This document shows positions 1-39,563 of a DNA stretch of 54,287 nt, one piece after another. The stretch is from Burkholderiales bacterium RIFOXYD12_FULL_59_19. Lineage in GTDB: Bacteria; Pseudomonadota; Gammaproteobacteria; Burkholderiales; Burkholderiaceae_C. Positions within the stretch are counted from its first letter, which is position 1, and each line of letters opens with the position of its first letter. The position numbers were made by a program, and so were the translations under genes. The notes under the pieces are model-generated. The model searched no databases and had not been told where the DNA came from. It saw only the letters and a list, made by a program, of their open reading frames with translations. The stretch is taken from NCBI GenBank assembly GCA_001771065.1, contig MESQ01000043.1, positions 1 to 54,287 of the forward strand, in the 5' to 3' direction.

Positions 1-1565
1 ATACCGATACCGATACCGATACCGATACCGATACCGATACCGATACCGATACCGATACCGATACGGATACGGATACGGATACGGATACGGATACGGACAC
101 CGATACGGACACCGATACGGACACCGACACGGATACGGACACGGACACGGACACCGATACGGATACGGATACGGACACCGATACCGATACGGATACGGAT
201 ACGGATACGGATACGGATACGGATACCGATACGGACAGCGACGCGGATGCCGACAGCGATGCGGATGCTGATAGCGATACGGACGCCGATAGCGACACGG
301 ACGCCGACAGTGATACGGATGCTGATAGCGACACGGACGCTGACAGTGATGCGGACGCTGACAGCGATACGGATGCCGACAGTGATGCGGACGCTGACAG
401 TGATACGGATGCGGATAGCGATGCGGACGCCGATAGCGATACAGATGCCGACAGTGATACGGATGCGGATAGCGATGCGGACGCCGATAGCGATACAGAT
501 GCCGACAGCGACACGGACGCTGACAGCGACACGGACGCCGACAGCGATGCGGATACCGACAGTGATACGGATGCTGATAGCGATGCGGATGCGGATGCGG
601 ATGCGGACGCTGACAGTGATACGGATGCCGACAGCGACACGGACGCTGACAGCGACACGGATGCCGATAGTGATACGGACGCTGATAGCGATACGGATGC
701 CGACAGCGATGCGGACGCTGACAGCGACACAGATGCTGATAGCGATACTGATACCGACAGCGATGCGGATGCGGATAGCGACACGGATGCTGATAGCGAT
801 GCGGATGCGGATAGCGATGCGGATGCTGACGCCGACAGCGACACGGACGCTGACAGTGATACGGATGCCGACAGCGATGCGGACGCCGATAGCGATACAG
901 ATGCCGACAGCGACACGGACGCCGACAGTGATACGGATGCCGATAGCGATACAGATGCCGACAGCGACACGGATGCCGATAGTGATACGGACGCTGATAG
1001 CGATACGGATGCCGACAGCGATGCGGACGCTGACAGTGATACGGATGCCGATAGCGATACAGATTCCGACAGCGACACGGATGCCGATAGTGATACGGAT
1101 GCCGATAGCGACACGGACGCTGACAGTGATACGGATGCTGATAGCGATGCGGACGCTGACAGTGATACGGATGCCGATAGCGATACAGATGCCGACAGCG
1201 ACACTGATACCGACAGCGATGCGGACGCTGACAGCGACACGGATGCCGATAGCGATGCGGACGCTGACAGCGACACGGATGCCGATAGTGATACGGATGC
1301 CGACAGCGATGCGGACGCTGACAGTGATACGGATGCCGACAGCGACACTGATGCTGACAGTGATACGGATGCCGATAGCGATACAGATGCCGACAGCGAT
1401 GCGGACGCTGACAGCGACACGGATGCCGACAGCGATGCGGACGCTGACAGCGACACGGATGCCGACAGTGACACGGATGCCGACAGTGATACGGATGCTG
1501 ACAGTGATACGGATGCCGATAGCGATACAGATGCCGACAGCGACACGGATGCTGATACCGACAGT
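1..1565. repeat. 6-bp-phased tandem repeat array (coding)
   Basis: From base 1 to about 240 the DNA is almost pure hexamer: ATACCG units first, then ATACGG, then mixed ATACGG/ACACCG. From about 240 to 1565 the same 6-bp phase continues with more variants (GATGCG, GACGCC, GATAGC, GACAGC and similar) arranged in partly repeated higher-order blocks. The unit length keeps the Asp-X reading frame through any gain or loss of copies. The array runs off the left edge. The purest part is at the left, which suggests more recent expansion there. Confidence 0.93.
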
Positions 1566-2135
1566 GACGCGGATGCGGACAGCGATTCCGACTCAGATGT
1601 CGATAGCGATAGCGATGCGGATTCTGACGATGACTCAGATCACGACAAAGACGATAAGGACGATAAGGACGATAGGGACGATAGGGACGATAGGGACGAT
1701 AAGAAGGATAAGGACGATAAGAAAGATAAGGACGATAAGGACGATAAGGACGATAAGGACGATAAGGACGATAAGGACGACTGGGACGACAAGGACGACT
1801 GGGACGATAAAGACAAGACTGATGATCAAAGCAAATTTGATGCATCTTCAGAGGATGATCTAAATAGCCAAGGCGAAGACAATGACAGCTTGTTTAGCTT
1901 GGGCGATGCGGCTGATGGTCAGACAACAGCTGGATCTAGCTGGACAGATATGATCGAAGTTGATGTCCACTCAGGTGAGGCACACACTGAGCAAGGAGAC
2001 TGGTCGTCGTTGATTGATGATTTAGATAGCGATACTAATTCTGATTCCGGTAATCAAACTGATGAAACTGACCATTCTTCAGGTGGTAAAGATGACGGAA
2101 TGGACTTTGATGAAACTGACAAAATAGATTGGTAA
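3..2135 (+). CDS. Giant Asp-rich repeat protein, C-terminal part (5' end outside window)
   Basis: The frame with codons starting at multiples of three is open from the window edge to a TAA at 2133-2135, giving at least 710 residues with no start codon in view. Order seen: about 80 residues of Thr-Asp dipeptides; about 460 residues of Asp alternating with Ala, Ser or Thr; a short Asp/Ser zone; about 55 residues of Lys/Arg-Asp-Asp units with two Asp-Trp units; then about 110 non-repetitive acidic residues ending DKIDW. No sortase motif, no hydrophobic C-terminal helix and no RTX nonapeptide are visible in this part. Such sequences resemble acidic, Ca2+-binding or mineral-binding proteins, and an extracellular location is inferred only. 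The next gene starts 209 bp downstream in the same direction. A second frame is also open across the repeat, but only because the repeat unit is 6 bp. Function unknown. Confidence 0.8.
1650..1809. repeat. GACGATAAG-type 9-bp tandem repeat (coding)
   Basis: Nine-base units GAC GAT AAG, with AGG, TGG or AAA variants of the last codon and two short AAG/AAA-GAT interruptions, encode Asp-Asp-Lys/Arg/Trp. This array differs from the preceding 6-bp array in both period and encoded charge pattern, placing a block of regularly spaced Lys/Arg within the acidic protein. Confidence 0.9.
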
Positions 2136-2344: not shown

Positions 2345-4231
2345 ATGAATCTGGATCGCCATGCAACCCCTATTGGTTTGCTCTACAACCCTGGTGACTT
2401 GTTCGGTGAGAGACGTGCAGAGTTGATGGTTGGGCCCATGCTGATGGGTGGTTTGCAGCCCGTGAAGTTTGTATCGGACCAAATTGACGCAGATACATTG
2501 ACGGTTGCTGGGCAATGGTTCAAAGATGGTTCATGGCAACCCTGTGCAAACGCCATAATTTCATGTATCTTGGACTTTTCAATTCCAAATCAGACACGGA
2601 CCACGGCCGAGGCATTGCTACTTCAGCAAACGCCGCATTCGCATCGCATTGACCTGAATCGATGGCAACTCTTTCATCTCTTGCAGCACGATGACGAAGT
2701 TAATTGCCTGGTTTTGCCTTGCAGACCGTTGGATAGTCAAAAGGATGTGGAGGTTGCTGTACATCAGTGGCCTGCATTCGTGGTCAAAAGCCGCTTTGAA
2801 GGTAGCCCAGACCAGCCGTACTTGATTGAAAAATATCCCGATGGTTGGAAAATCACCAACTTCTACCAAGAAACCTGTGTCGATGATTCAACTTTTCAGA
2901 GCTGGTTAAGCAGTAAGTACAACGGTAAATGGATGCTGCAGGCGTTCTTGTCCACACGATCAGCACAGTCCAGGCCTTACGCTTTACAAATCACCGTACA
3001 GCAGCGTCATGATGGCGCCTGGATGGCGCCAACCATTCAGTGCATGCTTGCCACTGAGTCTCCGTTTGCCTGTTTACAGGCCGGCGCTGAACATATCGGT
3101 CCACCATTCGCACCCATTTGGGAGAACGTGGTTATTCCGACGGATCATCCAAACTACCCTGGACTCGCTCCGCGATTGCAGTGTTTTGGTCTGGTATTGG
3201 CCCGGCGCATTGAAGAACTCTCCGGTGGTCAGCCGATGGCGCTTGGGTTCCGGGTATTGCTCGACAAAGAGCTCAATCCGTATCTTGTAAACCTGGATGT
3301 TCGAGCCGCTGCGCCCACGCGAGCCGCGCGCAATATGGAGTTCTTTCGGCACATGACTGAATTTGCCTTTGGTCTGACCGTGATCAGAGCAAAAAATATC
3401 CCGGGACCAAAATGTCTCTTTGATGCAGTCAACCCTATCAGTCAATGTCCCAGCTGTGGCATTTCGGTTCGCTCAAATATCAAACCCGAAGAAGTGGTGA
3501 CGTTAATGCGTAACCAGTCTGGGTGGATCGATCTCGCAGTGGGCATGGGTGGTCGTAGAACACTCCGTGCCGCAAACGAGTTGGCCGAAGAGGTCAGTCA
3601 GAGGGCTTTCATTTCGCTACGAATTGGTGTCGCGGCCAACGACATCGCGTTGCCGGATCTCGGCGAAAAGCGACTCAGCGCCCAAGAGGAATATGTTGGT
3701 AAAGGCCTATTGCGCTGGCCCGAGGTACGTTTGATGCGCAGTGCCAGAGTTCCGTTGTTACAAGCGCAGTTACATCATGCATTGCAGTTGATGCCGGCAC
3801 GTGGTCCAGACATGATTTGGGTAGAGGATATGGACTTGGGGATGCGAGCGCTTCCAGAGGCAGAGCGCTTGGCTGAACTCAAAAAAACGATGACATGGCT
3901 GGACAGCGTTTGTCTCCAAGGTTGGGCTGGTTGTTGGGGGGTGTGTCTTTTTAATGACAAAAGTGTTGAATCTCAGGTATTGCTTGAGCAAATGCTAGCG
4001 CACTCCTCTGGGCAAGGATTCTTCAAAAAAATCGGCGTACGCGCTGCCAACTTCAACACAAAGCAGTGGGAAAAAATGTCAGCGCAATTGCCGGAGCTGG
4101 TGTTACTCGCCAATAACTCGACTGAACATCAATGGGTCACCCAGAACCTGCCACAGATCCCGGTGTTGACGAAGTGGTCACCAGAATCTGCCGCACTCTC
4201 GAACCTTTCTCAGGCCATTGCAACATGCTGA
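2345..4231 (+). CDS. ATP-grasp-like protein with degenerate active site and AKR-like C-terminal half (628 aa)
   Basis: The N-terminus (IGLLYNPG, about residue 10) and the middle resemble YheC/YheD-type ATP-grasp proteins and parallel the next gene product domain for domain. The ATP-grasp lysine seems kept (FVVKSR, about K148), but the glycine-rich loop expected after it is replaced by FEGSPDQ. The usual Glu-x-Asn metal site near the end of the fold reads VNLDV (about residue 316), so catalysis is doubtful. A CPSC pair lies near residue 368. The C-terminal half (about 375-620) looks like a divergent aldo/keto-reductase-type barrel with the same GVC strand seen in the next protein. The gene overlaps the next start by 7 bp, implying translational coupling. 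I infer a non-catalytic or regulatory paralogue of the larger enzyme, and no precise function can be assigned. ATG start; no strong ribosome site. Confidence 0.7.
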   Translation: MNLDRHATPIGLLYNPGDLFGERRAELMVGPMLMGGLQPVKFVSDQIDADTLTVAGQWFKDGSWQPCANAIISCILDFSIPNQTRTTAEALLLQQTPHSHRIDLNRWQLFHLLQHDDEVNCLVLPCRPLDSQKDVEVAVHQWPAFVVKSRFEGSPDQPYLIEKYPDGWKITNFYQETCVDDSTFQSWLSSKYNGKWMLQAFLSTRSAQSRPYALQITVQQRHDGAWMAPTIQCMLATESPFACLQAGAEHIGPPFAPIWENVVIPTDHPNYPGLAPRLQCFGLVLARRIEELSGGQPMALGFRVLLDKELNPYLVNLDVRAAAPTRAARNMEFFRHMTEFAFGLTVIRAKNIPGPKCLFDAVNPISQCPSCGISVRSNIKPEEVVTLMRNQSGWIDLAVGMGGRRTLRAANELAEEVSQRAFISLRIGVAANDIALPDLGEKRLSAQEEYVGKGLLRWPEVRLMRSARVPLLQAQLHHALQLMPARGPDMIWVEDMDLGMRALPEAERLAELKKTMTWLDSVCLQGWAGCWGVCLFNDKSVESQVLLEQMLAHSSGQGFFKKIGVRAANFNTKQWEKMSAQLPELVLLANNSTEHQWVTQNLPQIPVLTKWSPESAALSNLSQAIATC

Positions 4232-7200
4232 TTGGCTTTTTGCATCGAGGCGGTCTTGAGCAATGGTCTTACGCCATCATGGCTGATATTGCTGCGCAAG
4301 GGGCTGAGGTCATGCGCTTCACCTGCGAAGATGTTGACTTTGAAAAACGTCAAGTTTTGGGTGAGGTCTGGCAAGACAGCCAATGGGTCAAACGCCGCTT
4401 CAGATACCCTGACGCAGTTCGAAATTTTGAATTTCGTGATGAAACGAAAGATGTGATTCTTGAACATCTACCGTACTCATTGGGTCGGCATTTACGTAAA
4501 AATGAACAACTTGACTTATTGGCCAAGATTCCAAATGTTGCATCCTTCATCCCGGTTACCCTTGACCTTGATGATCAGATGGATATTTTTACACTTGTAC
4601 AAAAGTGGGGTGGCGTCATTCTCAAACCTGCGCGTGGCAGACTGGGGCAAGGTATCGTTTTCATACGCCGAACCGGTCAGCAATACGAGCTTGAAGAGGA
4701 TGGTCAGCGAAAACCACTTGATCAAGACGCACTACAGAATTACTTGCGCGGATTTGCCGAGCGCACGGGGCGTTCATATGTTGTGCAACAATTTGCCGCC
4801 ACGACTGGTCCGCAAAATCGCTACTTTAATGTGCGCATCATTATTCAAAAGTCAGGTGATGGCGACTGGCATCCCTGTGATTTCCCATTGTCACTTTTGG
4901 CTCAGCCAGGCAGTGTGGTTGCCAACCGCGAAGCGGGAGCCACCAACGTCAGTCTCAAGTCGATGCTTCAATACCGATTTACGGACAAAGCTGATCAGGT
5001 TTTGGAGGCTATTTTTTCTGCCGCAGTGCTGATTGCCCGTGCGCTTGATGATGCGCTGGCCCAACAAGCGGATGAACTCGCTTTAGATATGGCGGTGGAT
5101 GACAAGGGCGCGCCATGGCTGCATGAGACCAACTGGCGCGGTGGGTTTTGGATGCTGGAAGAGGATGTCGGCCTATACCGATATGGTGGAGCCAATGTTG
5201 TACGCTTGGCACGTCGACATCAATTTGGAGGTGATATCGATGCTGCTCAGGCGGCCTTGCACATCGCAAGAAATAGAAACAAAAATTGTCGGCATGCGCC
5301 TGGCTCGAATCTGCTCGCCTCCCGTTTGGGAATCGATATTCCGCTTCGATCCGAAGTAACGGTCACCAATATCACCAGTTTGATTCTGGCGGGCGTTGAT
5401 TGGTTTTGTGTCAGTGACTCTAGTTCATTTGGTGCTGCCCAACAAGCGGTGGGTCGTGCACTGGACGTGCTCCTTGAGCAAATGCCCGAGCGACCGTTGC
5501 CTAAACTTGTATCGATGTCTGGATTTTGCCAACATGACCCTTTTGATACACGTTCACCTCAGCGCTGGATCACGCAGGAACTGGTGGCCAAAGGCATCAT
5601 TACCGACGCTGAAGCCAGTTTAGGCCTGTCCATGTCCCCTGACTTCTTGAAGCGTGCCATCACTAAAAACTGTCAGGATCTAGGTGTTTCGTCACTTGAT
5701 GTCTTTTTGTTACAGGGGATTGAGTATCGGATTGACCACGATGCCAACTGGCATGCGGCCTGGCGTCTGGCATGTCAAGAACTAAGCAGAAGTCAAACAG
5801 CGGGTGACTGCCTGGAGTGGGGTGTTTGTTTGTCCTATCAGTGGCTAATGGCACATCGTGACAACTTATATGAACTGCTTTCTGTCGATGCGAGCAATCC
5901 CGTCAGGGCGATGCTGGTTGAGGTCCGGCCTGATGAACCTGTCGTCGACATTGCCTATCTATGTTCTATTGCAACGCAATTTGCACTCAAGTTGATGATT
6001 AAGGTATTGCCGTTGGCACCTTGCATTAAGCCTTGGCACGCCTCTCACCGATTGGTGCCACTGAAAATGGTTCAGCACCTGGTCGGGGAATGCGTCAATC
6101 GCGAAATACTGATTTTTTGTCCGGTTGCCAATGCGGTCGAGTTAGATGATTTTTTGGTTCTAAATCAAAATTTTTCTGGAGAAGATTCCCCTATGCTGAC
6201 GAACGATGTAGCCACCTCATCCCCATCAGAAAACCTCGTGACCCGGGCGCTGCAGGCGTTTGCCCAATTCGACGCCAGGCAACTGTTCCGGTTTTTTGTG
6301 GATGGGCGATTTCACAAAAAATACCAAGGTTGGACGGGGTACGAGGCCAACGAGGCGGGCTCCGTGCAAGGCATTCTGGATGCCTATCAGTTGATGATTG
6401 AAAACTTTGACTTGTCAAAGGGTCTGACATCAAGGTACATCCGGGATTTGCACATCGCCTGTATGGGCGGGGTAAGCACCAAGAACAAAAAATCCACACC
6501 AGGGGAAATGCGCTCGCTTGAATCTGGCATCAACCTTTACAACGGCAAATCGACGTTGGCAAGCGTGCAGGAGCTTCTTGAGCAACGTCGGGGTGATGGC
6601 AACAGTATCTTCCATCACCCTGATTACCAGAAACCGGCTGAGGCTTTTACTGCACAAGAGATTTTGCAGATTATTAAAAAAGAAGGACGCGTTCGCTACC
6701 GGGCTTGGTACCCCAACTTGACTCAAGAGCAACAACAACAGTTAACGCAAGGGCGCACGCTTAGCGAGTTTTATGCCGTCAAGCATTTTGTTCAGAAATG
6801 TTTTGCAGAACGAACCGACCACATTGTTGATGTTTTCAACCAAGAGGTCGCCGCTGCTCAAACCCCACATGAACATTTGATTGCCATATCTCGCGTGGTA
6901 CGAGATTTGGAGCTCCTGCACCCTTTCCCTGACGGGAATGGACGCACCTTTGTGGCGGTGCTGATGAATCATCTGTTGCTGGCAAAGGGCTTTTTGCCCG
7001 CCATATTGTGGGATCCAAATATTGACGCCGAACTCTCTGTGATCGAATTCGCAGACGAAATCCGCTTGGGTATAAAAAATACCGAAACATTGCTTCGCGA
7101 TCCAACGGCAACTCTTTATGACTATGCCATCACTCAAGCTAAGCCAGACGAGATAAAAGTGTTTCAGGGCATGGCGCAGGCATTTATTGCTAGCCTGCAT

Positions 7201-8232
7201 GGATTGGCTTACCGCACTGAGGCCGAGCCCACGGAAGATGATCACAACCAGGCATTCATTTATCTCACGCCAAGTCGACTGGTGGCTAGCACCGGTGGCC
7301 AGTGGTTACCGACCAACCAACATACGATGTCACTCCGGTTTGATCGCATTTCAACAGGTAACGAACCCGGCCATCATCAATTGTTATTTTGCCGTAACCT
7401 CGCGACATGGAGGGAGGCGGGCAAAGACCCGCTCCTCGAGCTTCAGCGTGAAATAAATGACGGTGTCATCGCCATAGTCATCGATGACAACGAATTGGCA
7501 TTAAAGCTTAACCTCCCTGTGTTGCTGGTTGCGGACGTCGATCAAGCACTTTACGACGCGGGAGTTGCAGCACGTAAGGCCATCACCTGCCGTCGTGTCG
7601 CTGTAGTGGGCACCGAAGGTGCGGAAACTGTCAGGAGCCTGCTCACCCAGGCCGGTCGCCAACAGTTACGGGTTCAGGTTGACGAAAGGGGCGAGTGCAA
7701 AACCCCGCTGGTCATGGCTTCACTGGCCAATTTACGTCGTACTGACCAACTTCAAATTATTGAAGTCGCCATGGGAGCCAGGGTGAACGTAGCGCGGCAT
7801 CGACTGCGCGCCATTGAACCTGACTATTGTGTTTTTACATCGACCGACAACGTGGACGGGATTGCGCCGGAAACCTACGCCGATGTCCTCAAGACATTTG
7901 CCGCTTGTGTGGATGGGCTTCAACCAGGTGGACTTTGCATCCTCAATGCCGACAGCGTGTCTGCAGTCAAGTTAACGGAGGAAATCAAGGCAAGAGGTGT
8001 CGTATCGATTCAAACGTTTGGCCGTCAAACCGACAACGACGCTTGCATGCTTGGCGCAATTTTCGATACCCATACAGCGCGGTGGACCGTGACTGCCAAC
8101 ATTCTTGGCAAATCATTGACTTACACCATTCGCGGTAAGGCCTCACCGTTGTGGTCGGTGGCCGTACTGTTGTTGATGGAAAATATGGGTTGTGATATTC
8201 AAACTGCTAGCCGGTCATTCGAGAATTTTTAA
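4225..8232 (+). CDS. Four-domain fusion: ATP-grasp + AKR-like + Fic + Mur-ligase-like (1335 aa)
   Basis: Start chosen at ATG 4225, overlapping the upstream stop, because the conserved strand MLIGFLHRGG begins there. Domain 1 (about 1-375) is ATP-grasp: ILKPARGRLGQGI (K134 plus Gly-rich loop), YVVQQFA adenine strand and HETNW (E301, N303) metal site, all apparently intact. Domain 2 (about 385-650) is aldo/keto-reductase-like (SSFGAAQQAVGRAL, then SLDVFLLQG), but the catalytic Tyr and His positions are Phe and Gln. Domain 3 (about 695-960) is a Fic domain with HPFPDGNGR at H899; the second Arg of the classic motif is Val. Domain 4 (about 1005-1335) resembles the N-terminal and central parts of MurE/MurF ligases, but its P-loop reads GTEGAETV, lacking the Lys. 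ATP-grasp and Fic look active; the other two look like scaffolds. Substrate unknown: amide or ester bond formation and nucleotide- or phospho-group transfer are the family chemistries. Confidence 0.8.
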   Translation: MLIGFLHRGGLEQWSYAIMADIAAQGAEVMRFTCEDVDFEKRQVLGEVWQDSQWVKRRFRYPDAVRNFEFRDETKDVILEHLPYSLGRHLRKNEQLDLLAKIPNVASFIPVTLDLDDQMDIFTLVQKWGGVILKPARGRLGQGIVFIRRTGQQYELEEDGQRKPLDQDALQNYLRGFAERTGRSYVVQQFAATTGPQNRYFNVRIIIQKSGDGDWHPCDFPLSLLAQPGSVVANREAGATNVSLKSMLQYRFTDKADQVLEAIFSAAVLIARALDDALAQQADELALDMAVDDKGAPWLHETNWRGGFWMLEEDVGLYRYGGANVVRLARRHQFGGDIDAAQAALHIARNRNKNCRHAPGSNLLASRLGIDIPLRSEVTVTNITSLILAGVDWFCVSDSSSFGAAQQAVGRALDVLLEQMPERPLPKLVSMSGFCQHDPFDTRSPQRWITQELVAKGIITDAEASLGLSMSPDFLKRAITKNCQDLGVSSLDVFLLQGIEYRIDHDANWHAAWRLACQELSRSQTAGDCLEWGVCLSYQWLMAHRDNLYELLSVDASNPVRAMLVEVRPDEPVVDIAYLCSIATQFALKLMIKVLPLAPCIKPWHASHRLVPLKMVQHLVGECVNREILIFCPVANAVELDDFLVLNQNFSGEDSPMLTNDVATSSPSENLVTRALQAFAQFDARQLFRFFVDGRFHKKYQGWTGYEANEAGSVQGILDAYQLMIENFDLSKGLTSRYIRDLHIACMGGVSTKNKKSTPGEMRSLESGINLYNGKSTLASVQELLEQRRGDGNSIFHHPDYQKPAEAFTAQEILQIIKKEGRVRYRAWYPNLTQEQQQQLTQGRTLSEFYAVKHFVQKCFAERTDHIVDVFNQEVAAAQTPHEHLIAISRVVRDLELLHPFPDGNGRTFVAVLMNHLLLAKGFLPAILWDPNIDAELSVIEFADEIRLGIKNTETLLRDPTATLYDYAITQAKPDEIKVFQGMAQAFIASLHGLAYRTEAEPTEDDHNQAFIYLTPSRLVASTGGQWLPTNQHTMSLRFDRISTGNEPGHHQLLFCRNLATWREAGKDPLLELQREINDGVIAIVIDDNELALKLNLPVLLVADVDQALYDAGVAARKAITCRRVAVVGTEGAETVRSLLTQAGRQQLRVQVDERGECKTPLVMASLANLRRTDQLQIIEVAMGARVNVARHRLRAIEPDYCVFTSTDNVDGIAPETYADVLKTFAACVDGLQPGGLCILNADSVSAVKLTEEIKARGVVSIQTFGRQTDNDACMLGAIFDTHTARWTVTANILGKSLTYTIRGKASPLWSVAVLLLMENMGCDIQTASRSFENF

Positions 8233-8256: not shown

Positions 8257-8985
8257 TCAGGGAGTCTCTGTAGTTTGATCAATTTTCAAATACTCAATAA
8301 CCCGGTTGTAGTCTTCCACGTAATCAAGCTCTGCCCAGAATACCCCCTTGATATCTTTCACATAGATCCGTGTACCCGTGCCCACAAATGCATAAAAAAT
8401 ATCTTCCCACCACTTGCTACTTTGCTGGCTACTGATCATTTCATCAAGTTTGGTAATAAATTTGATGAAAAATGATTTGTCAAACATGCCAATTCCGACA
8501 TACTCGCCAGTGGTCTCGCTGTCGGGGATATCTTTGCCATAACGACTCAAGATATCGTTTTTCCAGACAAACCGGTAATCAGCCTCTGCAATTCTTGACG
8601 TATCCGCCAAAAAAACCGGGCTGCGCTTTTCTGCCAAGATGGCTTCCAACAACTCATCTTCAATGAAGAGATCGCCATTGATGATGATGGTGTCGTCGGG
8701 CTCAGAAAAAAATTCTTTGGCAAACCACAATGATGCAATGGAGTTGGTGACATCAAAAAATGGGTTGTAAAACACAGCTGCCTGGTAGGGTTGCATGGCC
8801 TTAACAACTTCGCCAGACTGGTAGCCCGTGATCACTGCAACATCATGGATGCCATGGGCCTTGAGTACGCGCAATGTGCGGCGAATGATAGGTTCACCAT
8901 CAAACTCAACACAGCATTTGGGTTTGCCTTGTATGTGCCGACTGATGCGGGTACCGCGACCTGCGGCCATGATGACAGCTTTCAT
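8257..8985 (-). CDS. LicC/PntC-like sugar- or phosphoamine nucleotidyltransferase (242 aa)
   Basis: An N-terminal nucleotide-binding signature (MAAGRGTRISRH, then GKPKC) and the LicC-like layout mark a nucleotidyltransferase of the phosphocholine / 2-aminoethylphosphonate cytidylyltransferase type, which couples CTP to a small phosphorylated or phosphonate amine. INGDLF and the acidic WAELD near the C-terminus fit metal and product binding. The start at 8985 is preceded by AAAGGA at good spacing. It lies 53 bp downstream of the aminotransferase gene on the same strand and probably shares its message. It is convergent with the four-domain gene, with only 24 bp between stops. The substrate cannot be fixed from sequence: phosphocholine, AEP or a sugar phosphate are all possible. 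Confidence 0.75.
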   Translation of the reverse strand: MKAVIMAAGRGTRISRHIQGKPKCCVEFDGEPIIRRTLRVLKAHGIHDVAVITGYQSGEVVKAMQPYQAAVFYNPFFDVTNSIASLWFAKEFFSEPDDTIIINGDLFIEDELLEAILAEKRSPVFLADTSRIAEADYRFVWKNDILSRYGKDIPDSETTGEYVGIGMFDKSFFIKFITKLDEMISSQQSSKWWEDIFYAFVGTGTRIYVKDIKGVFWAELDYVEDYNRVIEYLKIDQTTETP

Positions 8986-9038
8986 TGATGTTCCTTTCGA
9001 CGTGTATCTGGACTCAGAGCGCCAGTATTGGTGGCTAT

Positions 9039-10112
9039 TCAATCAGGCAGAACAATTAGTGCATTGGATTCTTCGATAATCCATTGGGCCAGTTGTGCAA
9101 GTTCTGCTTCGTGCTGTTCACCCATATGAGAAATTCTTATGAATGTCTCTGCCTTGGTTGGATTCAAAGGCAGCACAGCTTGGTACTTGTCCCGGATGAT
9201 CCCCGCCAAGGGCGTTGCCATGACGCCTGGTGGCAAGGTGATGGCACTCAATGCATTGGAGGGAGTTTGCGCAAAAAGTTGAAAACCTGGTTCAGCCAAC
9301 ATCAGGTCTCTAAAGTACGTAGCACGCTCGGCCGTCTGTTGAATGCGTGCTGCTAGTCCAACTTTCCGAATCGACTGCAGCATGTGCGCAACCTGAAACG
9401 TAGCGTGCATGGCAGGCGTAAAAGGGAGCATACCGCGTGGAATATTGTCCAGGTAAACCCGGGCATCCAAATAGGACCGGAAATGAGTAGTTTGTCGAAG
9501 TTTGCGCTGAGCGCGTTCCGAGAAGGTGACAAATACCAAGCCTGGCATACATGCCAGGCCTTTTTGTGAACATGCCGTCGCACAATCCACTTGCCAGGCA
9601 TCCATCTCAAAAGGGTCGCAACCAATAGAGCTCACCCCATCAACTATCGTCAGGCAATCTTTGCTGGCCAGTGCCTGGCACGCAGAGCGCACATCAAAGC
9701 GCTGGCCTGTAGAGGTTTCATGCGCCGACAACAAAACCCCTTTAACGTTTGGACCCACGGCGTCCAAAAGCCGTTGCAGATCCAGATCACGCCCATGTTC
9801 CAACGGCATTTCATGCGTATGCAGGCCCAAATCACGCGCCATGCTGCCCCATTTCGCACCAAAAGTGCCACCGTTGACAAAAACAACTTCGTCGCCAGGG
9901 TTAAAAAGGTTAACCAGCGCCATTTCCATTCCGGCTGTGCCAGATGCGGTAATCGTCAGCGGAGTGGATGTGGTGCCAAACAGGTAACGCAGGTCTTCCG
10001 TCAAGGCTTGAACATGTTCGCAGTAGTTCTTGCTACGAAAGTACGGCAGTGGCTCAGCGCCAATGCGGCGAATGTCATCGGCCATTTCTGTTGGTCCTGG
10101 CGTAAAAAGCAT
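9039..10112 (-). CDS. Class V PLP aminotransferase, 2-aminoethylphosphonate:pyruvate / alanine-glyoxylate type (357 aa)
   Basis: The N-terminal LFTPGPTEM, the SGTAGMEMAL cofactor loop, the VDGVSSIG strand with the PLP-binding Asp, and SQKGLACMPG with the Schiff-base Lys (K184) are hallmarks of the fold-type I, class V family that includes PhnW and serine/alanine-glyoxylate aminotransferases. AGGAG precedes the ATG at 10112. Its pairing with a LicC/PntC-like cytidylyltransferase recalls phosphonate-tailoring loci, where phosphonoacetaldehyde is aminated to AEP and then activated with CTP. PEP mutase and phosphonopyruvate decarboxylase are not in this window, so the AEP assignment is inference. 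Confidence 0.75.
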   Translation of the reverse strand: MLFTPGPTEMADDIRRIGAEPLPYFRSKNYCEHVQALTEDLRYLFGTTSTPLTITASGTAGMEMALVNLFNPGDEVVFVNGGTFGAKWGSMARDLGLHTHEMPLEHGRDLDLQRLLDAVGPNVKGVLLSAHETSTGQRFDVRSACQALASKDCLTIVDGVSSIGCDPFEMDAWQVDCATACSQKGLACMPGLVFVTFSERAQRKLRQTTHFRSYLDARVYLDNIPRGMLPFTPAMHATFQVAHMLQSIRKVGLAARIQQTAERATYFRDLMLAEPGFQLFAQTPSNALSAITLPPGVMATPLAGIIRDKYQAVLPLNPTKAETFIRISHMGEQHEAELAQLAQWIIEESNALIVLPD

Positions 10113-10342: not shown

Positions 10343-10924
10343 TCATCTTTTCGAAGCTTTGCTCGACTTCTTTTTGCTTGATACGGGTGTTTTTGGGGCT
10401 TCGGTGTAAATTTCAACTTCATCAAGATGAAGATAGTTTTTTTCTTCCAATTGCAGCCTTACATATCGGGCAATTTTTCCTTGCGCATTGACGATCAAGG
10501 GGGTGCTGTCAAGTACGCCTCCGAAAGACAAACCACCTGAATAAATTTTCTCCCATTCGGTCTGGTCGCCGGATAGCAGAACCGTCAGACTCTTGGCACG
10601 ATCAGCAATAGGACTTCCCTTTTGACCTCTGTTGAAGATGCTTAGAGAAGTAAGTGCATACGACTTTCCAAGGTCAACTTGCCACCATGGATTAGCTTCT
10701 AACTCAGTATGAAAGCTTTGCTCGCCAGATTTAATGCCGTTCACAGCCGAAGCAGCCTCATCGGGCTTCGACCAGCGACTCACGGAACTTTGAGTGGCAG
10801 GCTTGTTTAGTGCCACATTAATCAAACTAGCTTTTGTGGTTGTTGTCATGTGGATGTCATCTTTCAAAAGAGTGTGTGGATGAACTTGCGCTGAATTGTC
10901 TGCGTATGTTACAGGCTTTGACGT
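10343..10924 (-). repeat. Discoidin module, copy 1 of a direct duplication (copy 2 at 14081-14656)
   Basis: Both copies lie on the - strand and align through the linker (SKPVTY), the discoidin domain and the Lys/Ser-rich C-terminus, with most residues identical. They flank the AT-rich cassette carrying the two FkbM-like genes. Confidence 0.75.
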
Positions 10925-11977
10925 CCGTGTACCAGTCGCAATTGAGGCTCGATTTAAAAAATTTGGAATGGATTTTGGTTGGGCCACCTTTACGGAAATT
11001 ACATTTTCCTGATTCATCAAAAAAGATGGAATGTCTGTGAAGCTGGAAGAACCCGTGTGAACAAGATATTGACAACGCGATAGCAAAAACATATCCACAA
11101 GTGCTTCCTCACCCATAAGAATTTTATCTATACAATGTTTAGAAGAATGAATCGCAGTATTATCATCAGGGTAAAACTTCTCAGTCGACAAGATGCTGCC
11201 GTATTTTTCCTGGAAAACGTTCAGTATTAGTTTGTTGTCAGTGCATAGAAATATTTGTGCATTTTGATTTTTTTCAAGTATCGAGTCAATTTTTGGAAAA
11301 TAATCATCAATAATAACATTTCGTTTGGCAACAAATTTTGGTAATAAGTTGTCTGTATATCGTACATGTACGCCAATAGTCACCTTTTCAAAATTTATAT
11401 TTTGAAATAAATTTATTTTTTTTTCAATATGAGGTTTTAAACAAATATATTCTTGCATTAATTTTCGTTTAATCTCAAGCATTGATAGTTTTTTGAATTC
11501 TAAAGGGAATGAGTTTCTATGATTTTGAAATATCCACCACCGAAAAGTCCAGCTAATCCAAACTAAAACATCTTCAATGTAATCAATTCTAGATGGTTCC
11601 ATTATAAAATAACTATAGGGGTCATCTCGCTTAACATCATCATGACGCCATGCAATGAAATCAATTCTTTCCCGCCAATTACAACCAACACCGCCTTGCC
11701 AACTATGTGGTATCACTGATAATTCGTTTTCGATCAAAGAGGAAGGGTCGCTAGTCGGCTTTACTAATGGGCTGTCAAAAAATAGATCAAATGCATTGAT
11801 ACCCTTCGGGGCATAAACACCATCAGTCCAATCTACAATAATTATTCGATTGGTGATTAAAGAATAAAAAGCGACTTCTAGAAAGGATCGAATTCTATTG
11901 CCGAAACCAGATATGCCTTTTAAATAAATGTATTTTATTGCATTTTTTTTGGATTCATTATCGGTAATATTTTGCAT
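10343..11977 (-). CDS. NodZ/GT23-like fucosyltransferase-type glycosyltransferase fused to discoidin (F5/8 C) domain (544 aa)
   Basis: The N-terminal part (about 1-345) has GFGNRIRSFLE near the start, IGVHVRYTDN, and a late LVHTGSSSFTDIPSF loop, the peptide order of NodZ/O-fucosyltransferase-like GDP-sugar transferases. A linker of about 50 residues leads to a C-terminal discoidin domain (about 390-525: NVALNKPATQSS, WWQVDLGKSY, ARYVRLQLEE), then a Lys/Ser-rich tail. The glycosyltransferase part is markedly AT-rich while the discoidin part is near 50% GC, so the gene is a mosaic. A near copy of the discoidin part lies at 14081-14656. ATG 11977 is used; an in-frame TTG lies 12 bp upstream, and neither has a good ribosome site. 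Likely role: cell-surface glycan assembly. Confidence 0.7.
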   Translation of the reverse strand: MQNITDNESKKNAIKYIYLKGISGFGNRIRSFLEVAFYSLITNRIIIVDWTDGVYAPKGINAFDLFFDSPLVKPTSDPSSLIENELSVIPHSWQGGVGCNWRERIDFIAWRHDDVKRDDPYSYFIMEPSRIDYIEDVLVWISWTFRWWIFQNHRNSFPLEFKKLSMLEIKRKLMQEYICLKPHIEKKINLFQNINFEKVTIGVHVRYTDNLLPKFVAKRNVIIDDYFPKIDSILEKNQNAQIFLCTDNKLILNVFQEKYGSILSTEKFYPDDNTAIHSSKHCIDKILMGEEALVDMFLLSRCQYLVHTGSSSFTDIPSFLMNQENVISVKVAQPKSIPNFLNRASIATGTRTSKPVTYADNSAQVHPHTLLKDDIHMTTTTKASLINVALNKPATQSSVSRWSKPDEAASAVNGIKSGEQSFHTELEANPWWQVDLGKSYALTSLSIFNRGQKGSPIADRAKSLTVLLSGDQTEWEKIYSGGLSFGGVLDSTPLIVNAQGKIARYVRLQLEEKNYLHLDEVEIYTEAPKTPVSSKKKSSKASKR

Positions 11978-12043
11978 GGCATCAATCAATAAGTATATAC
12001 TTTAGCTAAGCGGTCATTAATATATTAATTAATTTAAGTAAAT

Positions 12044-12967
12044 ATGAACATATTTGAGCATTTCAAAGTAAATAAAAGTCATTACGATGCAAAATTCCAA
12101 TTTGATGAATTTTATTTTTCTGAAAAGAGATCTTCTATTAACGATATTTGGTTAGTAATTCAAAAATTGATCCCGCGAAAATGTGGCATTGAATTGATTC
12201 GGCTGGGTGGATCTGGTGATGGTGGTTATTTGGTGCCAAATGACCTAGACGGAATTGAGGCATTATTTTCTCCGGGAGTAAATAATTTTAAAAATTTTGA
12301 AGATTATTTGTGTAATGAATATAGAATAAAATCGTTTATGTGTGATTTTACTTCTGATATCGGTAAATTTAAAACACCTATGATTGAAGGAATGCAATTC
12401 TTTGAAAAAAAATGGCTTGATACAAATGGTGATAAAGATTCAATTAGTTTAAATAATTGGGTTGAATTGAATACGTCCGAGACTGATGATTTGATTCTAC
12501 AAATGGATATTGAAGGTGCTGAGTACAGGAATTTATTGCATGCTAGTCAAGATATTCTCAAAAAATTCAGAATAATTATTGTGGAGTTACATGGGTTGAG
12601 GCATTTGTGGAAAGATGGTTTTTTAAATGGCATTCTCTCTCCAATTGTTAATAAATTAAGTGAAAATTTCATTTGTGTTCATGCCCATCCAAACAATTGT
12701 TGTGGTGTTTCTAAATTTGAAAATATTGTTGTGCCAAATGTAATGGAGCTAACTTTTCTTCGAAATGACAGGATTGGTCATGAAATTATCCCTATCCAAA
12801 TTCCTAATAAACAAGATAAATCTAATGTTCCCAGTAAGCCTCCCATATATTTAACTGGTGAATGGCTCATGAATTCTGATATCAATGAATCTGAAAAAAA
12901 TATGTTAAAAGATAAAATTTCTTGGCTTGAAATGGAAAATATTAGATTGATCAACAAAATGAGATAA
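12044..12967 (+). CDS. FkbM-like methyltransferase-fold protein (307 aa)
   Basis: The motif LQMDIEGAEYRNLL (about residues 148-161) is the FkbM/Methyltransf_21 signature that follows the SAM-binding core. The upstream RLGGSGDGGYLVP segment and the later IVELHGL strand are typical of the divergent FkbM-like proteins found in surface-polysaccharide clusters. The C-terminal 40 residues look like a short amphipathic helix. The gene is strongly AT-rich, unlike the housekeeping genes to the right, and is divergent from the glycosyltransferase gene with 66 bp between start codons. Likely O-methylation of a sugar or lipid, substrate unknown. Confidence 0.65.
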   Translation: MNIFEHFKVNKSHYDAKFQFDEFYFSEKRSSINDIWLVIQKLIPRKCGIELIRLGGSGDGGYLVPNDLDGIEALFSPGVNNFKNFEDYLCNEYRIKSFMCDFTSDIGKFKTPMIEGMQFFEKKWLDTNGDKDSISLNNWVELNTSETDDLILQMDIEGAEYRNLLHASQDILKKFRIIIVELHGLRHLWKDGFLNGILSPIVNKLSENFICVHAHPNNCCGVSKFENIVVPNVMELTFLRNDRIGHEIIPIQIPNKQDKSNVPSKPPIYLTGEWLMNSDINESEKNMLKDKISWLEMENIRLINKMR

Positions 12968-12982
12968 ATTATTATTAATTAC

Positions 12983-13034
12983 TTTTATCAAACTATTAAA
13001 TAGTTTGATAAAATAAAATAAGTACTTATTTTAT
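12983..13034. terminator. Two adjacent perfect palindromes between convergent genes
   Basis: A 15-bp perfect inverted repeat with a 1-nt centre (12983-12997 with 12999-13013) is followed immediately by a 22-bp perfect palindrome (13013-13034). They sit between the converging FkbM-like genes. AT-only bidirectional termination is the simplest explanation. Confidence 0.5.
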
Positions 13035-13088
13035 AAACGATTTTTTTAATTTGCAAAAATTTTTGTCTTTAAAATAGCCAGAAAATTT

Positions 13089-13739
13089 TTAAGATTTAAT
13101 TCGCCACCATTGTCTTAAAAAAAGTGCATCAGCCCAGCCATGCCTGTTGAAATTAACGTTTTGAAGAAAGAAACCAAACTTCGCCAATAGCTCGCAAACT
13201 TGAATAAAATTGGCGCCACCTTCATACAGAGGTGCGACAGAAACCTCAACTACCAATCCGATCAAATCTTTAGAAGATAGTATTTTATCAGCACCTTTTA
13301 GAACGAGTATTTCCGCACCTTGGACATCAATTACCATAAAATTAATGGATTTAGGAATTTTCCCCGAATCAACTAAATTATCTACAGTTTCGGTTGTTAA
13401 TTTAATTGTATTTGTATACTTAATGGATGGATATTCAATTGCGTGACGACCAAGCGCAAAAATTGATGAACTTTGACCGCCATTGCTCGCAACATTAAAA
13501 GAAATTTCTTTTCCCGCGATATCACTTAAACAGGCATTGATAGCATATTGCCTGGATGATGTTGAGCATTTTTCTTTTAAGGTATTAAAAATAGTTGGTA
13601 TTGCTTCAACAAGATAACCTGTTAAGTTCAATGCTTCATATTTTTCCACTTCTTGTCCCGTATTGGCACCAATGTGGATGATGATTTCAGGGCGCTTGAT
13701 ATTAAAATATTCAAGTACTTTTAGGATTTTATCGATCAT
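13089..13739 (-). CDS. FkbM family methyltransferase (216 aa)
   Basis: IIIHIGANTGQEVEKY (motif I, SAM binding) near residue 20, VEAIPTIFNTL, and VIDVQGAEILVLKGA (about residues 135-150) give the complete FkbM pattern, and the length is usual for the family. FkbM proteins methylate hydroxyl groups of sugars or polyketides. ATG 13739 has only a weak upstream purine stretch. AT-rich like its neighbours; part of the surface-glycan island. Confidence 0.85.
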   Translation of the reverse strand: MIDKILKVLEYFNIKRPEIIIHIGANTGQEVEKYEALNLTGYLVEAIPTIFNTLKEKCSTSSRQYAINACLSDIAGKEISFNVASNGGQSSSIFALGRHAIEYPSIKYTNTIKLTTETVDNLVDSGKIPKSINFMVIDVQGAEILVLKGADKILSSKDLIGLVVEVSVAPLYEGGANFIQVCELLAKFGFFLQNVNFNRHGWADALFLRQWWRIKS

Positions 13740-34304: not shown

Positions 34305-35714
34305 ATGACCCTGGGACCCAACCCCCAACCCCAAGCCGCAGCAGACCCTGGCGGCACAGATTTTTGGCAAGCCTGTATTGATCAACTGGCGCAGGATCTC
34401 CCCGAACAACAGTTTCAGACCTGGATCAAGCCACTGACAGCCCAGGTGGCCGACGACCTGACCAAGGTCACCATTTTTGTTGCCAACCGTTTCAAAATGG
34501 ATTGGATCCGGGCCCAATACAGCCACAAGCTGGCTTTGATCATGGAGCGCTTGACCGGCCAAACCGTGCAGATCGAGCTGGCGTTGGCCGCCCGGGAGGC
34601 TGTGGTACGCAAACCCGAACCCAAGACGGCGAGCGCTGCCGTGCTGTTGGAGACGCTGGCTGAGGCCGACCACTTTCGCCCGGCCGAGCCCCTGAAAAGC
34701 CGACTCAACACGTCGTTGACGTTTGACACCCTGGTCGAAGGCAGTGCCAACCGCATGGCGCGTGCGGCGGCCATGCACGTGGCCGGCATGCCGGGTCATT
34801 TGTACAACCCGCTGTTCATTTATGGCGGTGTAGGCCTGGGCAAAACCCACTTGATGCACGCGGTGGGCAACCAGTTGATGGCCGACCACCGCAGTGCCAA
34901 GGTGCTTTACATCCATGCCGAGCAGTTCGTCACCGATGTGGTGAAAGCCTACCAGCGCAAGGCGTTTGATGAATTCAAGGAACGCTACCACTCGCTGGAT
35001 TTGCTGTTGATCGATGACGTGCAGTTTTTTGCCAACAAGGAACGCACGCAAGAGGAGTTTTTTAACGCCTTTGAGGCCTTGCTGGCCAAAAAGTCGCATA
35101 TTGTTATGACCAGCGACACCTACCCCAAGGGCCTGGCTGACATTCATGAGCGCCTGGTGTCGCGTTTTGATTCGGGCCTGACCGTGGCGATCGAGCCGCC
35201 CGAACTTGAAATGCGGGTCGCCATTTTGATCAACAAGGCGCAGGCAGAGGGCATTGTGATGCCCGAGGAAGTGGCCTTTTTTGTGGCCAAAAACGTGCGC
35301 TCCAACGTGCGCGAGCTCGAAGGCGCCTTGCGCAAAATTTTGGCGTATTCACGCTTCAACCAAAAAGAAATCTCGATCCTGCTGGCGCGCGAGGCGCTGC
35401 GCGACCTGCTGTCTATTCAGAATCGCCAGATCTCGGTAGAAAACATCCAGAAAACGGTGGCGGACTACTACAAAATCAAGATCGCCGACATGTATTCCAA
35501 GAAGCGGCCGGCCAGTATTGCCCGGCCGCGCCAGATTGCCATGTACCTGGCCAAGGAACTGACGCAAAAAAGCCTGCCCGAAATCGGAGAAATGTTTGGC
35601 GGACGTGACCACACCACGGTGCTGCACGCGGTGCGCAAGATCGGCACCGAGCGCCAGCAGGTCACTGAACTCAACCAGCAATTACACGTGCTGGAACAAA
35701 CACTTAAAGGTTGA
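34305..35714 (+). CDS. dnaA: Chromosomal replication initiator DnaA (469 aa)
   Basis: Domain I (about 15-90, [18 protein letters not shown]) is followed by a linker, the AAA+ domain with Walker [10 protein letters not shown] and Walker [11 protein letters not shown], and the C-terminal DNA-binding domain with [15 protein letters not shown]. It opens oriC. First gene of dnaA-dnaN-gyrB. Confidence 0.98.
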
Positions 35715-35819
35715 TGCCAAAAGGCTGACGCAAATGAGTGGGAAAATAGCCAATTTATCGCAAGCTGGTCTGGGCCAATCGGGATCCAGCTTATTCGCCA
35801 TTGAACCCAAGAGGAAGAC

Positions 35820-36926
35820 ATGATTGTTTTAAAAGCCACCCAGGACAAGGTTTTGTCGGTTTTGCAGGCGGTCTCGGGCATTGTTGAGCGTCGCCATACC
35901 TTGCCTATTTTGGCCAACGTGCTGATTCGCAAAACGGGCGATGCCTTGCAACTCACCACCAGCGACCTGGAAATCCAGATTCGCACGGCCGCCGAACTGG
36001 GTGGTGACACCGGTGACTTCACCACCACGGTGGGGGCGCGCAAGCTGATTGACATTTTGCGTACCATGCCGTCCGACCAGTTGGTGTCGCTCGAATCCAG
36101 CGCCGCCAAACTCATCCTCAAGGGTGGAAAAAGCAAGTTCACGCTGCAAACCATGCCTGCCGAAGACTTTCCGCTGGTGCAGGAGTCGGCCAACTTTGGC
36201 CCGGCCTTCAGCGTGCCGCAAAAAACACTCAAGGCCTTGCTGAGTCAGGTGTCGTTTGCCATGGCGGTGCACGACATTCGTTATTACCTCAACGGTATTT
36301 TGTTTGTGGTTGAGGGCAAGCAGCTCAGTCTGGTGGCCACCGACGGCCACCGGCTGGCGTTTGCAAGCGCCACGCTTGACGTCGAAGTGCCCAAGCAAGA
36401 GGTTATCCTGCCGCGCAAGACCGTGCTGGAACTGCAACGTCTGTTGTCCGATGCCGAAGGCGCCATCGAGATGCAATTTGCCAACAACCAGGCCAAGTTC
36501 AGCTTCGACGGCATGGAATTCGTCACCAAACTGGTCGAGGGCAAGTTCCCCGACTACAACCGCGTGATTCCGCGCAACCACAAAAACAGCATCACGCTGG
36601 GCCGCAGCGCGCTGCTGGCCACGCTGCAGCGTACCGCCATTTTGACCAGCGAAAAGTTCAAGGGTGTGCGCCTCAACATTGACCCCGGCACCCTGCGTGT
36701 GGCCGCCAACAATGCCGAGCAGGAAGAAGCCGTGGACGAGCTTGACATCGACTACGGCGGTGACAGCATCGAAATCGGCTTCAACGTGACCTACCTCATC
36801 GATGCCCTCAGCAACATGTCGCAAGACATGGTGACGCTGGAACTCTCCGACGGCAACAGCTCGGCGCTGTTCACCATTCCCGACAACACCACGTTCAAGT
36901 ATGTGGTGATGCCAATGCGCATCTAA
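35820..36926 (+). CDS. dnaN: DNA polymerase III beta sliding clamp (368 aa)
   Basis: Three clamp repeats; begins MIVLKATQDKVLSVLQAVSG and ends with the clamp C-terminus YVVMPMRI. GAGGAAG precedes the ATG. Length as expected. It lies 105 bp after dnaA. Confidence 0.98.
   Translation: MIVLKATQDKVLSVLQAVSGIVERRHTLPILANVLIRKTGDALQLTTSDLEIQIRTAAELGGDTGDFTTTVGARKLIDILRTMPSDQLVSLESSAAKLILKGGKSKFTLQTMPAEDFPLVQESANFGPAFSVPQKTLKALLSQVSFAMAVHDIRYYLNGILFVVEGKQLSLVATDGHRLAFASATLDVEVPKQEVILPRKTVLELQRLLSDAEGAIEMQFANNQAKFSFDGMEFVTKLVEGKFPDYNRVIPRNHKNSITLGRSALLATLQRTAILTSEKFKGVRLNIDPGTLRVAANNAEQEEAVDELDIDYGGDSIEIGFNVTYLIDALSNMSQDMVTLELSDGNSSALFTIPDNTTFKYVVMPMRI

Positions 36927-39563
<2,637 letters not shown>

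What the first reader, a model, noticed from the sequence alone, without database searches (positions are those of the whole stretch)
4225..8232. Single protein joining ATP-grasp, AKR-like, Fic and Mur-ligase-like domains
I know of no described enzyme with this domain order. The ATP-grasp and Fic active-site motifs look intact, while the AKR-like and Mur-like parts have lost key residues (Tyr to Phe, His to Gln; P-loop without Lys). Cyanophycin synthetase is a known precedent for joining an ATP-grasp and a Mur-ligase module, but not with Fic and AKR folds between them. This suggests a dedicated ligase/transferase for an unusual peptide or protein modification.
Basis: partly seen in the sequence, partly recalled or inferred. 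Interest (0 to 1): 0.85.

Follow-up and report, generated by a model that had tools for sequence, protein, structure and literature searches.

The report
Fic-ligase enzyme decorating Asp-repeat adhesins
One bacterial protein fuses an ATP-grasp ligase, a likely inactive aldo-keto-reductase fold, an AnkX-type Fic domain and a truncated MurF-like domain, and it sits near genes predicted to make a nucleotide-activated small amine and, in several species, a gene for an Asp-Ser/Thr repeat protein that it would likely decorate, which would be a new way for bacteria to chemically modify their own surface proteins.

Summary

The Fic part is AnkX-type: 139 of 141 family members meet a published criterion for AnkX-like CMP binding. 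In 13 loci from 13 genomes the gene lies within about 13 kb of an aminotransferase-fold enzyme (13/13) and a LicC/PntC-like nucleotidyltransferase (12/13); background 0/20, AnkX-like Fic without Mur 0/3. One locus carries a full 2-aminoethylphosphonate route. Asp-Ser/Thr/Ala runs (92 to 1,074 residues) occur in 5 of 13 loci, type I secretion genes in 5 of 13.

Best reading (inferred): Fic transfers an aminoalkyl phosph(on)ate from a CMP-linked donor to Ser/Thr of a secreted repeat protein, and a ligase (Mur, or ATP-grasp where Mur has decayed) adds an amide-linked group. Acceptor, head group and ligase product are untested; several loci show no repeat gene over 29-60 kb. AKR and, in this clade, Mur look inactive.

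The parts
3..2135 (+). 3' part of the gene for an Asp-rich repeat protein, cut by the contig start: 530 residues of D-[S/T/A] alternation, then a D/K-rich stretch and a C-terminal tail like that of the RTX protein in L005
   Evidence: tail 'WTDMIEVD...DKIDW*' compared by eye with L005 'WTDVIEMD...DKIEW*'
2345..4231 (+). 628-aa paralogue of the N-terminal half (YheCD-like ATP-grasp, P0058); glycine-rich loop and the E-x-N motif lost, so a likely pseudoenzyme partner
   Evidence: Pfam PF14398 3.6e-10; alignment A5; BLASTP 5e-11 to P0001
4225..8232 (+). four-domain protein P0001, 1,335 aa
4225..5259 (+). ATP-grasp (YheCD-like), K134, R139, D288, E301, N303 present
   Evidence: 1e-37; Foldseek 7mgv, 5zct; 17 of 17 rows identical
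5302..6186 (+). aldo-keto-reductase fold; the likely catalytic His position is Gln (Q497, placed by recalled motif); likely scaffold
6235..7221 (+). AnkX-type Fic domain with the AnkX-like CMP-binding segment (D693, R695, Y706)
6919..6945 (+). Fic motif HPFPDGNGR (residues 899-907)
7246..8229 (+). MurF-like domains 1+2, Walker A Lys lost (GTEGAET), C-terminal domain absent; likely inactive as a ligase
8257..9042 (-). nucleotidyltransferase P0059 (likely start Met at 8985); best solved relative LicC (CTP:phosphocholine cytidylyltransferase), PntC-AEPT third
   Evidence: PF12804 2.2e-14; 1jyk 1.3e-15; 6pd1 4e-8
9039..10112 (-). class V aminotransferase P0060; above no NCBIfam cut-off, so head-group precursor unknown here
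   Evidence: PF00266 4.8e-22; BhcA 165.8 of 650 bits; PhnW-AepZ 111.9 of 360.8 bits

Best explanation
The 1,335-aa protein joins an ATP-grasp ligase, an aldo-keto-reductase fold, an AnkX-type Fic domain and a truncated MurF-like domain, and likely transfers an aminoalkyl phosphate or phosphonate from a CMP-activated donor onto Ser/Thr of the neighbouring Asp-Ser/Thr repeat protein before its predicted export. Shown: folds, Fic and ATP-grasp motif residues, AnkX-like CMP-binding residues, the linked nucleotidyltransferase and aminotransferase genes, the repeat gene in 5 of 13 loci and type I secretion genes in 5 of 13. Inferred steps: (1) the aminotransferase-fold enzyme makes a small amino phosph(on)ate, namely 2-aminoethylphosphonate in L004, probably something else here (no convincing PEP mutase in this genome); (2) the nucleotidyltransferase activates it with CTP; (3) Fic transfers the phospho-aminoalkyl part to Ser/Thr and releases CMP, as AnkX does with CDP-choline; (4) a ligase joins a carboxylate to an amine on the product, with Mur in most relatives and ATP-grasp in the clade of this protein, where Mur has decayed; (5) AKR, Mur remnant and the P0058 paralogue hold substrate or partner; (6) the decorated, partly zwitterionic repeat protein is exported by type I secretion to the cell surface.
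Against: No assay. No D-repeat in the fetched flanks of 8 of 13 loci: L006 (8.8 kb only), L009, L010, L011, and over longer stretches L007 (whole 40-kb contig), L008 (36 of 37.7 kb), G751 (whole 28.8-kb contig) and G656 (60 kb), although L008, G656 and G751 have type I secretion genes; repeats elsewhere in those genomes were not searched. L006, L007, L009 and L010 show neither repeat nor type I secretion genes. In the window genome TIGR02320 PEP mutase gives 0 of 1; one PF13714 match (57 bits) is over Pfam's cut-off, as in 9 of 14 control genomes, but lacks the EDKxxxxxNS motif. Strong PF13714 matches in the genomes of L009 and L010 also lack the motif in the fetched stretches, the L009-linked copy being cut by its contig end, so a full AEP route is shown in one locus only. 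P0060 is far below the PhnW cut-off. The nucleotidyltransferase could use another NTP or sugar phosphate: its NCBIfam best hits are sugar nucleotidyltransferases, all far below cut-off. Nucleotidyltransferase identity does not track Fic identity (to window, L004: Fic 55%, NTPT 27%; L010: Fic 38%, NTPT 59%). AnkX's R44 is kept in only 17 of 140 readable members (Asn here). In L009 the nucleotidyltransferase was not found. The 20 background stretches come from four genomes and few contigs, not a random draw.
Confidence: 0.46

Rival explanations
1. Graspetide-like cross-linking: the ATP-grasp half joins Asp side chains to Ser/Thr hydroxyls (esters) or amines within the repeat protein, and Fic is secondary or regulatory.
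For: ATP-grasp fold hits include a RiPP ATP-grasp ligase (7mgv), RimK (5zct, 7qyr) and the microviridin macrocyclase MdnC (5ig9); alternating Asp and Ser/Thr supply both partners; ATP-grasp residues identical in 17 of 17 rows.
Against: Relatives without ATP-grasp (123 of 141) keep Fic-Mur, 118 of them with both Mur motifs, so Fic is the constant part; the linked nucleotidyltransferase and aminotransferase are unexplained. Esterification would also use up the Ser/Thr that Fic needs.
Confidence: 0.15
2. The acceptor is a glycan or a secreted small molecule/peptide: Fic and ligases build a CMP-linked or polymeric metabolite, and the repeat protein is a bystander.
For: PEP-mutase-linked nucleotidyltransferases are known from cell-surface glycan loci (PMC6697681, passages); glycan-type genes flank the window locus and L003 (NodZ-like, FkbM); L012 has a PGA_cap gene; the L004 toroid protein has weak glycoside-hydrolase/epimerase hits; 8 of 13 loci show no repeat gene in the fetched flanks.
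Against: NodZ/FkbM homologues were seen only in window and L003 among L003-L012; the characterised Fic enzymes described in PMC4177925 (passages) modify proteins; repeats occur in 5 of 13 loci and 0 of 20 background stretches.
Confidence: 0.23
3. An ordinary AMPylating Fic acting on a cellular regulator, toxin-antitoxin or defence style, fused to ligase folds that are structural only.
For: Canonical Fic motif HPFxDGNxR; weak PADLOC hits to SoFic (3.7e-7) and PDC-S04.
Against: AnkX-type fold and CMP-binding segment with 3 of 4 residues; the profile prefers AnkX over AMPylators by over 30 orders of magnitude in E; nucleotidyltransferase plus aminotransferase neighbours.
Confidence: 0.08
4. An effector injected into other cells, like AnkX, modifying host GTPases.
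For: Same Fic subtype as an injected effector.
Against: No type IV secretion or ankyrin family was among the hits of the proteins scanned, apart from the AnkX model itself, though not every ORF was scanned; the ATP-dependent ligase and biosynthesis partners suggest a cytosolic enzyme (inferred); record titles of the loci are of largely environmental bacteria.
Confidence: 0.03

Closest known systems
AnkX (phosphocholine transferase, Legionella effector)
   Same: Fic fold with AnkX-type extra segments; catalytic HPFxDxNxR; D28, R30, Y41 kept
   Different: no ankyrin family among the Pfam hits; fused to ligase folds; linked genes for a likely donor; likely acts on a self protein. R44 replaced by Asn in the window.
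Pnt/Lic head-group activation (PntC-AEPT, LicC; PMC6697681)
   Same: LicC/PntC-like nucleotidyltransferase near an aminotransferase; in L004 PEP mutase fused to a cytidylyltransferase-like domain
   Different: the paper discusses LicD-like phosphotransferases or glycosyltransferases in such loci and does not contain the word Fic; here the linked transferase is a Fic domain
MurF
   Different: fused behind Fic; in the ATP-grasp clade the C-terminal motif is lost in 18 of 18 and Walker A in 12 of 18
YheCD/RimK/graspetide ATP-grasp ligases
   Same: fold and motif residues
   Different: fused to AKR, Fic and Mur; substrate unknown
BapA of Paracoccus denitrificans (PMC5588039, passages)
   Same: type I secreted adhesin dominated by an Asp dipeptide repeat (891 Asp-Ala)
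   Different: no hydroxyl residues in that repeat; no Fic system mentioned in the passages read
Staphylococcal SD-repeat adhesins (SdrC/D, ClfA)
   Same: Ser-Asp repeats (NCBIfam matches by composition); glycosylated on Ser (recalled)
   Different: Gram-positive, sortase-anchored (recalled); the matches reflect repeat composition and are far below the cut-offs
Cyanophycin synthetase
   Same: ATP-grasp plus Mur-like module
   Different: Mur module here MurF-like, truncated, no Walker A Lys; Fic and AKR between
AnkX-type protein GI 496438677 in PMC4454073 (passages)
   Same: flagged there as AnkX type and as wrongly annotated UDP-N-acetylmuramyl pentapeptide synthase; likely an early sighting of the Fic-Mur fusion (inferred, sequence not seen)
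   Different: treated there as misannotation; the paper has no word beginning with 'Mur'

Membership tests
AnkX-type (CMP-donor) Fic | Fic motif HxFx(D/E)xNxR | tested here: met
   HPFPDGNGR 899-907; key residues identical in 17 of 17 rows
AnkX-type (CMP-donor) Fic | at least 3 of 4 CMP-binding residues D28, R30, Y41, R44 (PMC4454073) | tested here: met
   window has D693, R695, Y706, Asn for R44; 139 of 141 members meet it; misses P0124 and partial P0141
AnkX-type (CMP-donor) Fic | AnkX overall fold including the extra segments | tested here: met
AnkX-type (CMP-donor) Fic | phosphocholine-type transfer from a CDP/CMP donor | not testable with these tools
   needs biochemistry
AnkX ortholog (NF043028) | curated equivalog cut-off | tested here: not met
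   112.5 of 1400 bits
Mur ligase (active) | Walker A GxxGK[ST] and C-terminal domain | tested here: not met
   window GTEGAET and no C-terminal domain; both motifs kept in 118 of 123 relatives without ATP-grasp
ATP-grasp ligase (active) | Lys/Arg nucleotide ligands and E-x-N metal motif | tested here: met
   K134, R139, E301-x-N303 in 17 of 17 rows
Graspetide synthetase | precursor peptide with conserved leader and core | not tested
   no leader was sought
Aldo-keto reductase (active) | catalytic His | tested here: inconclusive
   Gln/Glu/Asp in 17 of 17 rows at position 497, but the position was placed by a recalled motif
Cyanophycin synthetase | ATP-grasp plus catalytically complete Mur module | tested here: not met
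   Mur incomplete
AEP pathway in the window genome | PEP mutase | tested here: not met
   TIGR02320 0 of 1; one PF13714 match of 57 bits, over the Pfam cut-off but without EDKxxxxxNS; genome 95.5% complete
AEP pathway in the L004 genome | PEP mutase motif, Ppd and AEP aminotransferase over cut-off | tested here: met
Anti-phage Fic defence | strong match to a PADLOC Fic family | tested here: inconclusive
   SoFic 3.7e-7 over residues 883-921 only

The most novel reading that the evidence does not exclude
A dedicated system by which free-living Proteobacteria and Campylobacterota turn a giant Asp-Ser/Thr repeat adhesin into a densely phospho(no)-aminoalkylated, amide-extended, zwitterionic fibre: a Fic enzyme works processively on hundreds of Ser/Thr sites, swaps head groups by swapping donor genes (aminoethylphosphonate in some species), and carries its own peptide-bond ligase in the same chain. 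It would be the first Fic enzyme for bulk decoration of a structural self protein and the first enzyme putting phosphonate on a bacterial protein.
Probability: 0.32. Interest if true: 0.93.

Novelty: new variant of a known kind. Interest (0 to 1): 0.82.

Why it matters
The Fic enzymes reviewed in PMC4177925 (passages read) disrupt the function of their targets, nearly always at a single residue; an AnkX-type Fic tied to surface-protein decoration would add a constructive, structural role and give the AnkX effector a free-living relative group. It also offers a concrete candidate for a step that PMC6697681 calls enigmatic (abstract start; passages), the tailoring steps after phosphonate formation. 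And it gives a testable idea for why some type I secreted adhesins carry very long Asp-Ser/Thr runs. The four-domain chain itself lets the order of transferase and ligase steps be tested in one purified protein.

Tried and rejected
Cyanophycin-synthetase membership: rejected (Mur incomplete). Ordinary MurF: rejected for the window protein. In one search, 70 of 100 relatives match, but apart from the window protein and a longer Mur-region match in G013 the rows cover mainly the Mur region alone, a few the AKR region and one the Fic core; they were taken as MurF, AKR or other Fic proteins without further test and not counted. Defence-system Fic: weak hits only. Class-wide search: 8 of 369 genomes matched at 1e-10, only the window genome strongly (7.9e-149; the others 1e-29 to 3e-13); three of the seven others (L088-L090) served as controls. 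Order searches: 3 of 298, 3 of 251, 1 of 193, and 1 of 10 in a family, seeds included, so the full system looks rare. Same-genus G013 has toroid and ATP-grasp/Mur-like matches but no Fic, nucleotidyltransferase or aminotransferase match in 20 kb (L081). PEP mutase in the genomes of L003-L012: PF13714 over cut-off in 5 of 10, over 90 bits in three (G468, G473, G474), but the EDKxxxxxNS motif only in the L004 copy. A motif hit in L080 lies in a different 824-aa ORF and is taken as chance. VIA-align rows do not show the ATP-grasp part because the AKR fills the list; this says nothing about the ATP-grasp fold. First regexes for Walker A and for the CMP-binding residues were faulty and were replaced by those. 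Papers: no paper in the held library holds 'Fic domain' with 'Mur ligase' and 'ATP-grasp', with 'aminoethylphosphonate', or with 'cytidylyltransferase'; the listings and the passages read in PMC4431377 and PMC2922099 show no description of the system. These cover open-licence papers only.
Full report

How widespread. A protein search found 17 clustered homologues besides the window's own record with the full order (P0003-P0019, 40-88% identity), and others with Fic directly followed by a Mur ligase; a second search found 145 proteins at 1e-20 or better, of which 120 are listed. I analysed 141 entries (P0001, P0003-P0056, P0061-P0146; P0002 is the window's own copy and was dropped): 18 with the ATP-grasp motif, 123 without. 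Genome searches show the fusion is rare: a strong hit only in the window genome among 369 of its class, 3 of 298, 3 of 251 and 1 of 193 in three other orders, seeds included.

What the Fic part is. The family profile hits AnkX at 2.6e-39, the next Fic family at 1.1e-5. The match covers the part before the Fic core and, by fold, AnkX 6-330. [quoted passage not shown] 139 of 141 family members pass. [quoted passage not shown] I think, without having seen that sequence, that this was a Fic-Mur fusion whose annotation was half right.

What surrounds it. I compared 13 loci from 13 genomes: the window, L003-L012, and two more found in an order search (G656: L079/L092/L093; G751: L080/L094/L095). A nucleotidyltransferase related to window 8257-9042 is present in 12 of 13; in the thirteenth, L009, only a weaker match to the cytidylyltransferase-like domain of L004 was seen. 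An aminotransferase-fold enzyme is present in 13 of 13: 11 class V-like, 2 class I/II (the L009 assignment rests on BLASTP similarity, and some matches are of reference proteins to themselves). Distances from Fic reach about 13 kb (G656, G751). The same queries find 0 of 20 background stretches of 20 kb (six from the window's genome, seven from L004's, six from G656, one from G228; not a random draw), 0 of 3 loci of AnkX-like Fic without Mur, and 0 of 1 related cluster without Fic. The window nucleotidyltransferase has LicC (CTP:phosphocholine cytidylyltransferase) as best solved relative, and PntC-AEPT third.

The clearest locus is L004 (Arcobacter sp. EP1 by its title). Directly after its four-domain gene come a PEP mutase with EDKxxxxxNS motif fused to a cytidylyltransferase-like domain, a phosphonopyruvate decarboxylase (397 bits, cut-off 312.5), the nucleotidyltransferase and an AEP aminotransferase (387 bits, cut-off 360.8): by family membership a full route to CMP-activated 2-aminoethylphosphonate. 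L009 also has homologues of the L004 PEP mutase (61% identity, cut by the contig end before the motif could be read) and decarboxylase. L009 and L010 have a methyltransferase next to Fic-Mur. Other strong PF13714 matches in the genomes of L009 and L010 lack the motif. The window genome has no TIGR02320 match; its one PF13714 match over the Pfam cut-off (57 bits) lacks the motif, and its aminotransferase is not PhnW by cut-off, so its head group is unknown.

The likely acceptor. Upstream of the window operon lies the end of a gene whose product alternates Asp with Ser, Thr or Ala for 530 residues. Such runs lie within about 8 kb of the Fic-bearing gene in 5 of 13 loci: window, L003, L004, L005 and L012, where the run is 1,074 residues, against 0 of 20 background stretches. 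In L005 RTX-type repeats follow (NCBIfam serralysin and RTX models, below cut-off); in L004 a later part of the same large ORF has a weak Bap/LapF-like match (24.5 of 180 bits). Type I secretion ABC and HlyD genes sit in 5 of 13 loci: L004, L008, L011, L079, L080 (HlyD 0 of 20 background; weak ABC matches in 7 of 20). Against this, no repeat was found in the other 8 loci, over 60 kb in G656, the whole 40-kb contig of L007, 36 kb of L008's contig and the whole 28.8-kb contig of G751; L006 is only 8.8 kb. L006, L007, L009 and L010 show neither repeat nor secretion genes. Contigs of window, L003 and L005 begin inside the repeat, so assembly gaps may hide more, which is a guess. A precedent for the substrate is BapA of Paracoccus denitrificans, a type I secreted adhesin with 891 Asp-Ala dipeptides (PMC5588039, passages).

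The ligase part. Of 123 relatives without ATP-grasp, 121 keep the Mur Walker A motif and 119 the C-terminal DxSRR motif (118 both); of 18 with ATP-grasp, 6 keep Walker A and none DxSRR. The ATP-grasp residues are identical in 17 of 17 rows. The simple reading is that one ligase took over from the other. This is inference from motifs; Mur could also remain as a binding domain. The upstream paralogue P0058 has lost its glycine-rich loop and E-x-N motif. In L012 Fic is a free-standing 317-aa gene with ATP-grasp genes on both sides and a separate Mur gene near by; in L005 a toroid-like domain is fused in front of Fic-Mur. Fusions and splits of the same set argue for one machine.

Mechanism and its limits. 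I commit to: CMP-linked aminoalkyl phosph(on)ate donor, Fic transfer to Ser/Thr of the repeat protein, ligase-made amide, export. Most secure is the donor type (about 0.75), then the protein acceptor (about 0.5), then the ligase step (about 0.45). Not settled: head group in the window species, acceptor in loci without a repeat, order of steps. Rivals are graspetide-like cross-linking, a glycan or small-molecule acceptor, AMPylation, and an injected effector.

Novelty. Each module is of a known kind, and by the published criterion the Fic is AnkX-type, so I file it as a new variant. The multi-gene system I found described nowhere in the held open-licence papers (searches); subscription papers were not searchable.

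Noticed in passing
window 34305-39563: dnaA, dnaN and gyrB in a row, so the window likely lies near the chromosome origin.
   Followed up: no
window 10343-13739: NodZ/fucosyltransferase-like protein with an F5/8 type C domain and two FkbM-type methyltransferases; similar genes in L003, not among the matches in L004-L012.
   Followed up: partly
window 247-1863 (+): A 538-aa ORF in a second frame of the D-repeat DNA, likely a by-product of the repeat; its one weak family hit looks spurious.
   Followed up: yes
L081 4169-12907 (G013, same genus): Fic-less cluster with toroid, ATP-grasp and Mur-like matches, without nucleotidyltransferase or aminotransferase match.
   Followed up: partly
L079 14395-16830: Mur ligase fused to an LPG_synthase_C (aminoacyl-transferase type) domain directly downstream of the Fic-Mur gene.
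   Followed up: no
L012 16031-17110: PGA_cap (poly-gamma-glutamate capsule) gene beside the separate Mur gene.
   Followed up: no
L011 18247-19485 and L012 4694-7129: Protein-kinase-domain genes next to the toroid gene, perhaps another Ser/Thr modifier.
   Followed up: no
L105 / G000:C72:28727-30208: The window genome's toroid homologue (34% identity) ends 265 bases before a contig end, so it could adjoin the repeat gene at the start of the window contig; not shown.
   Followed up: partly
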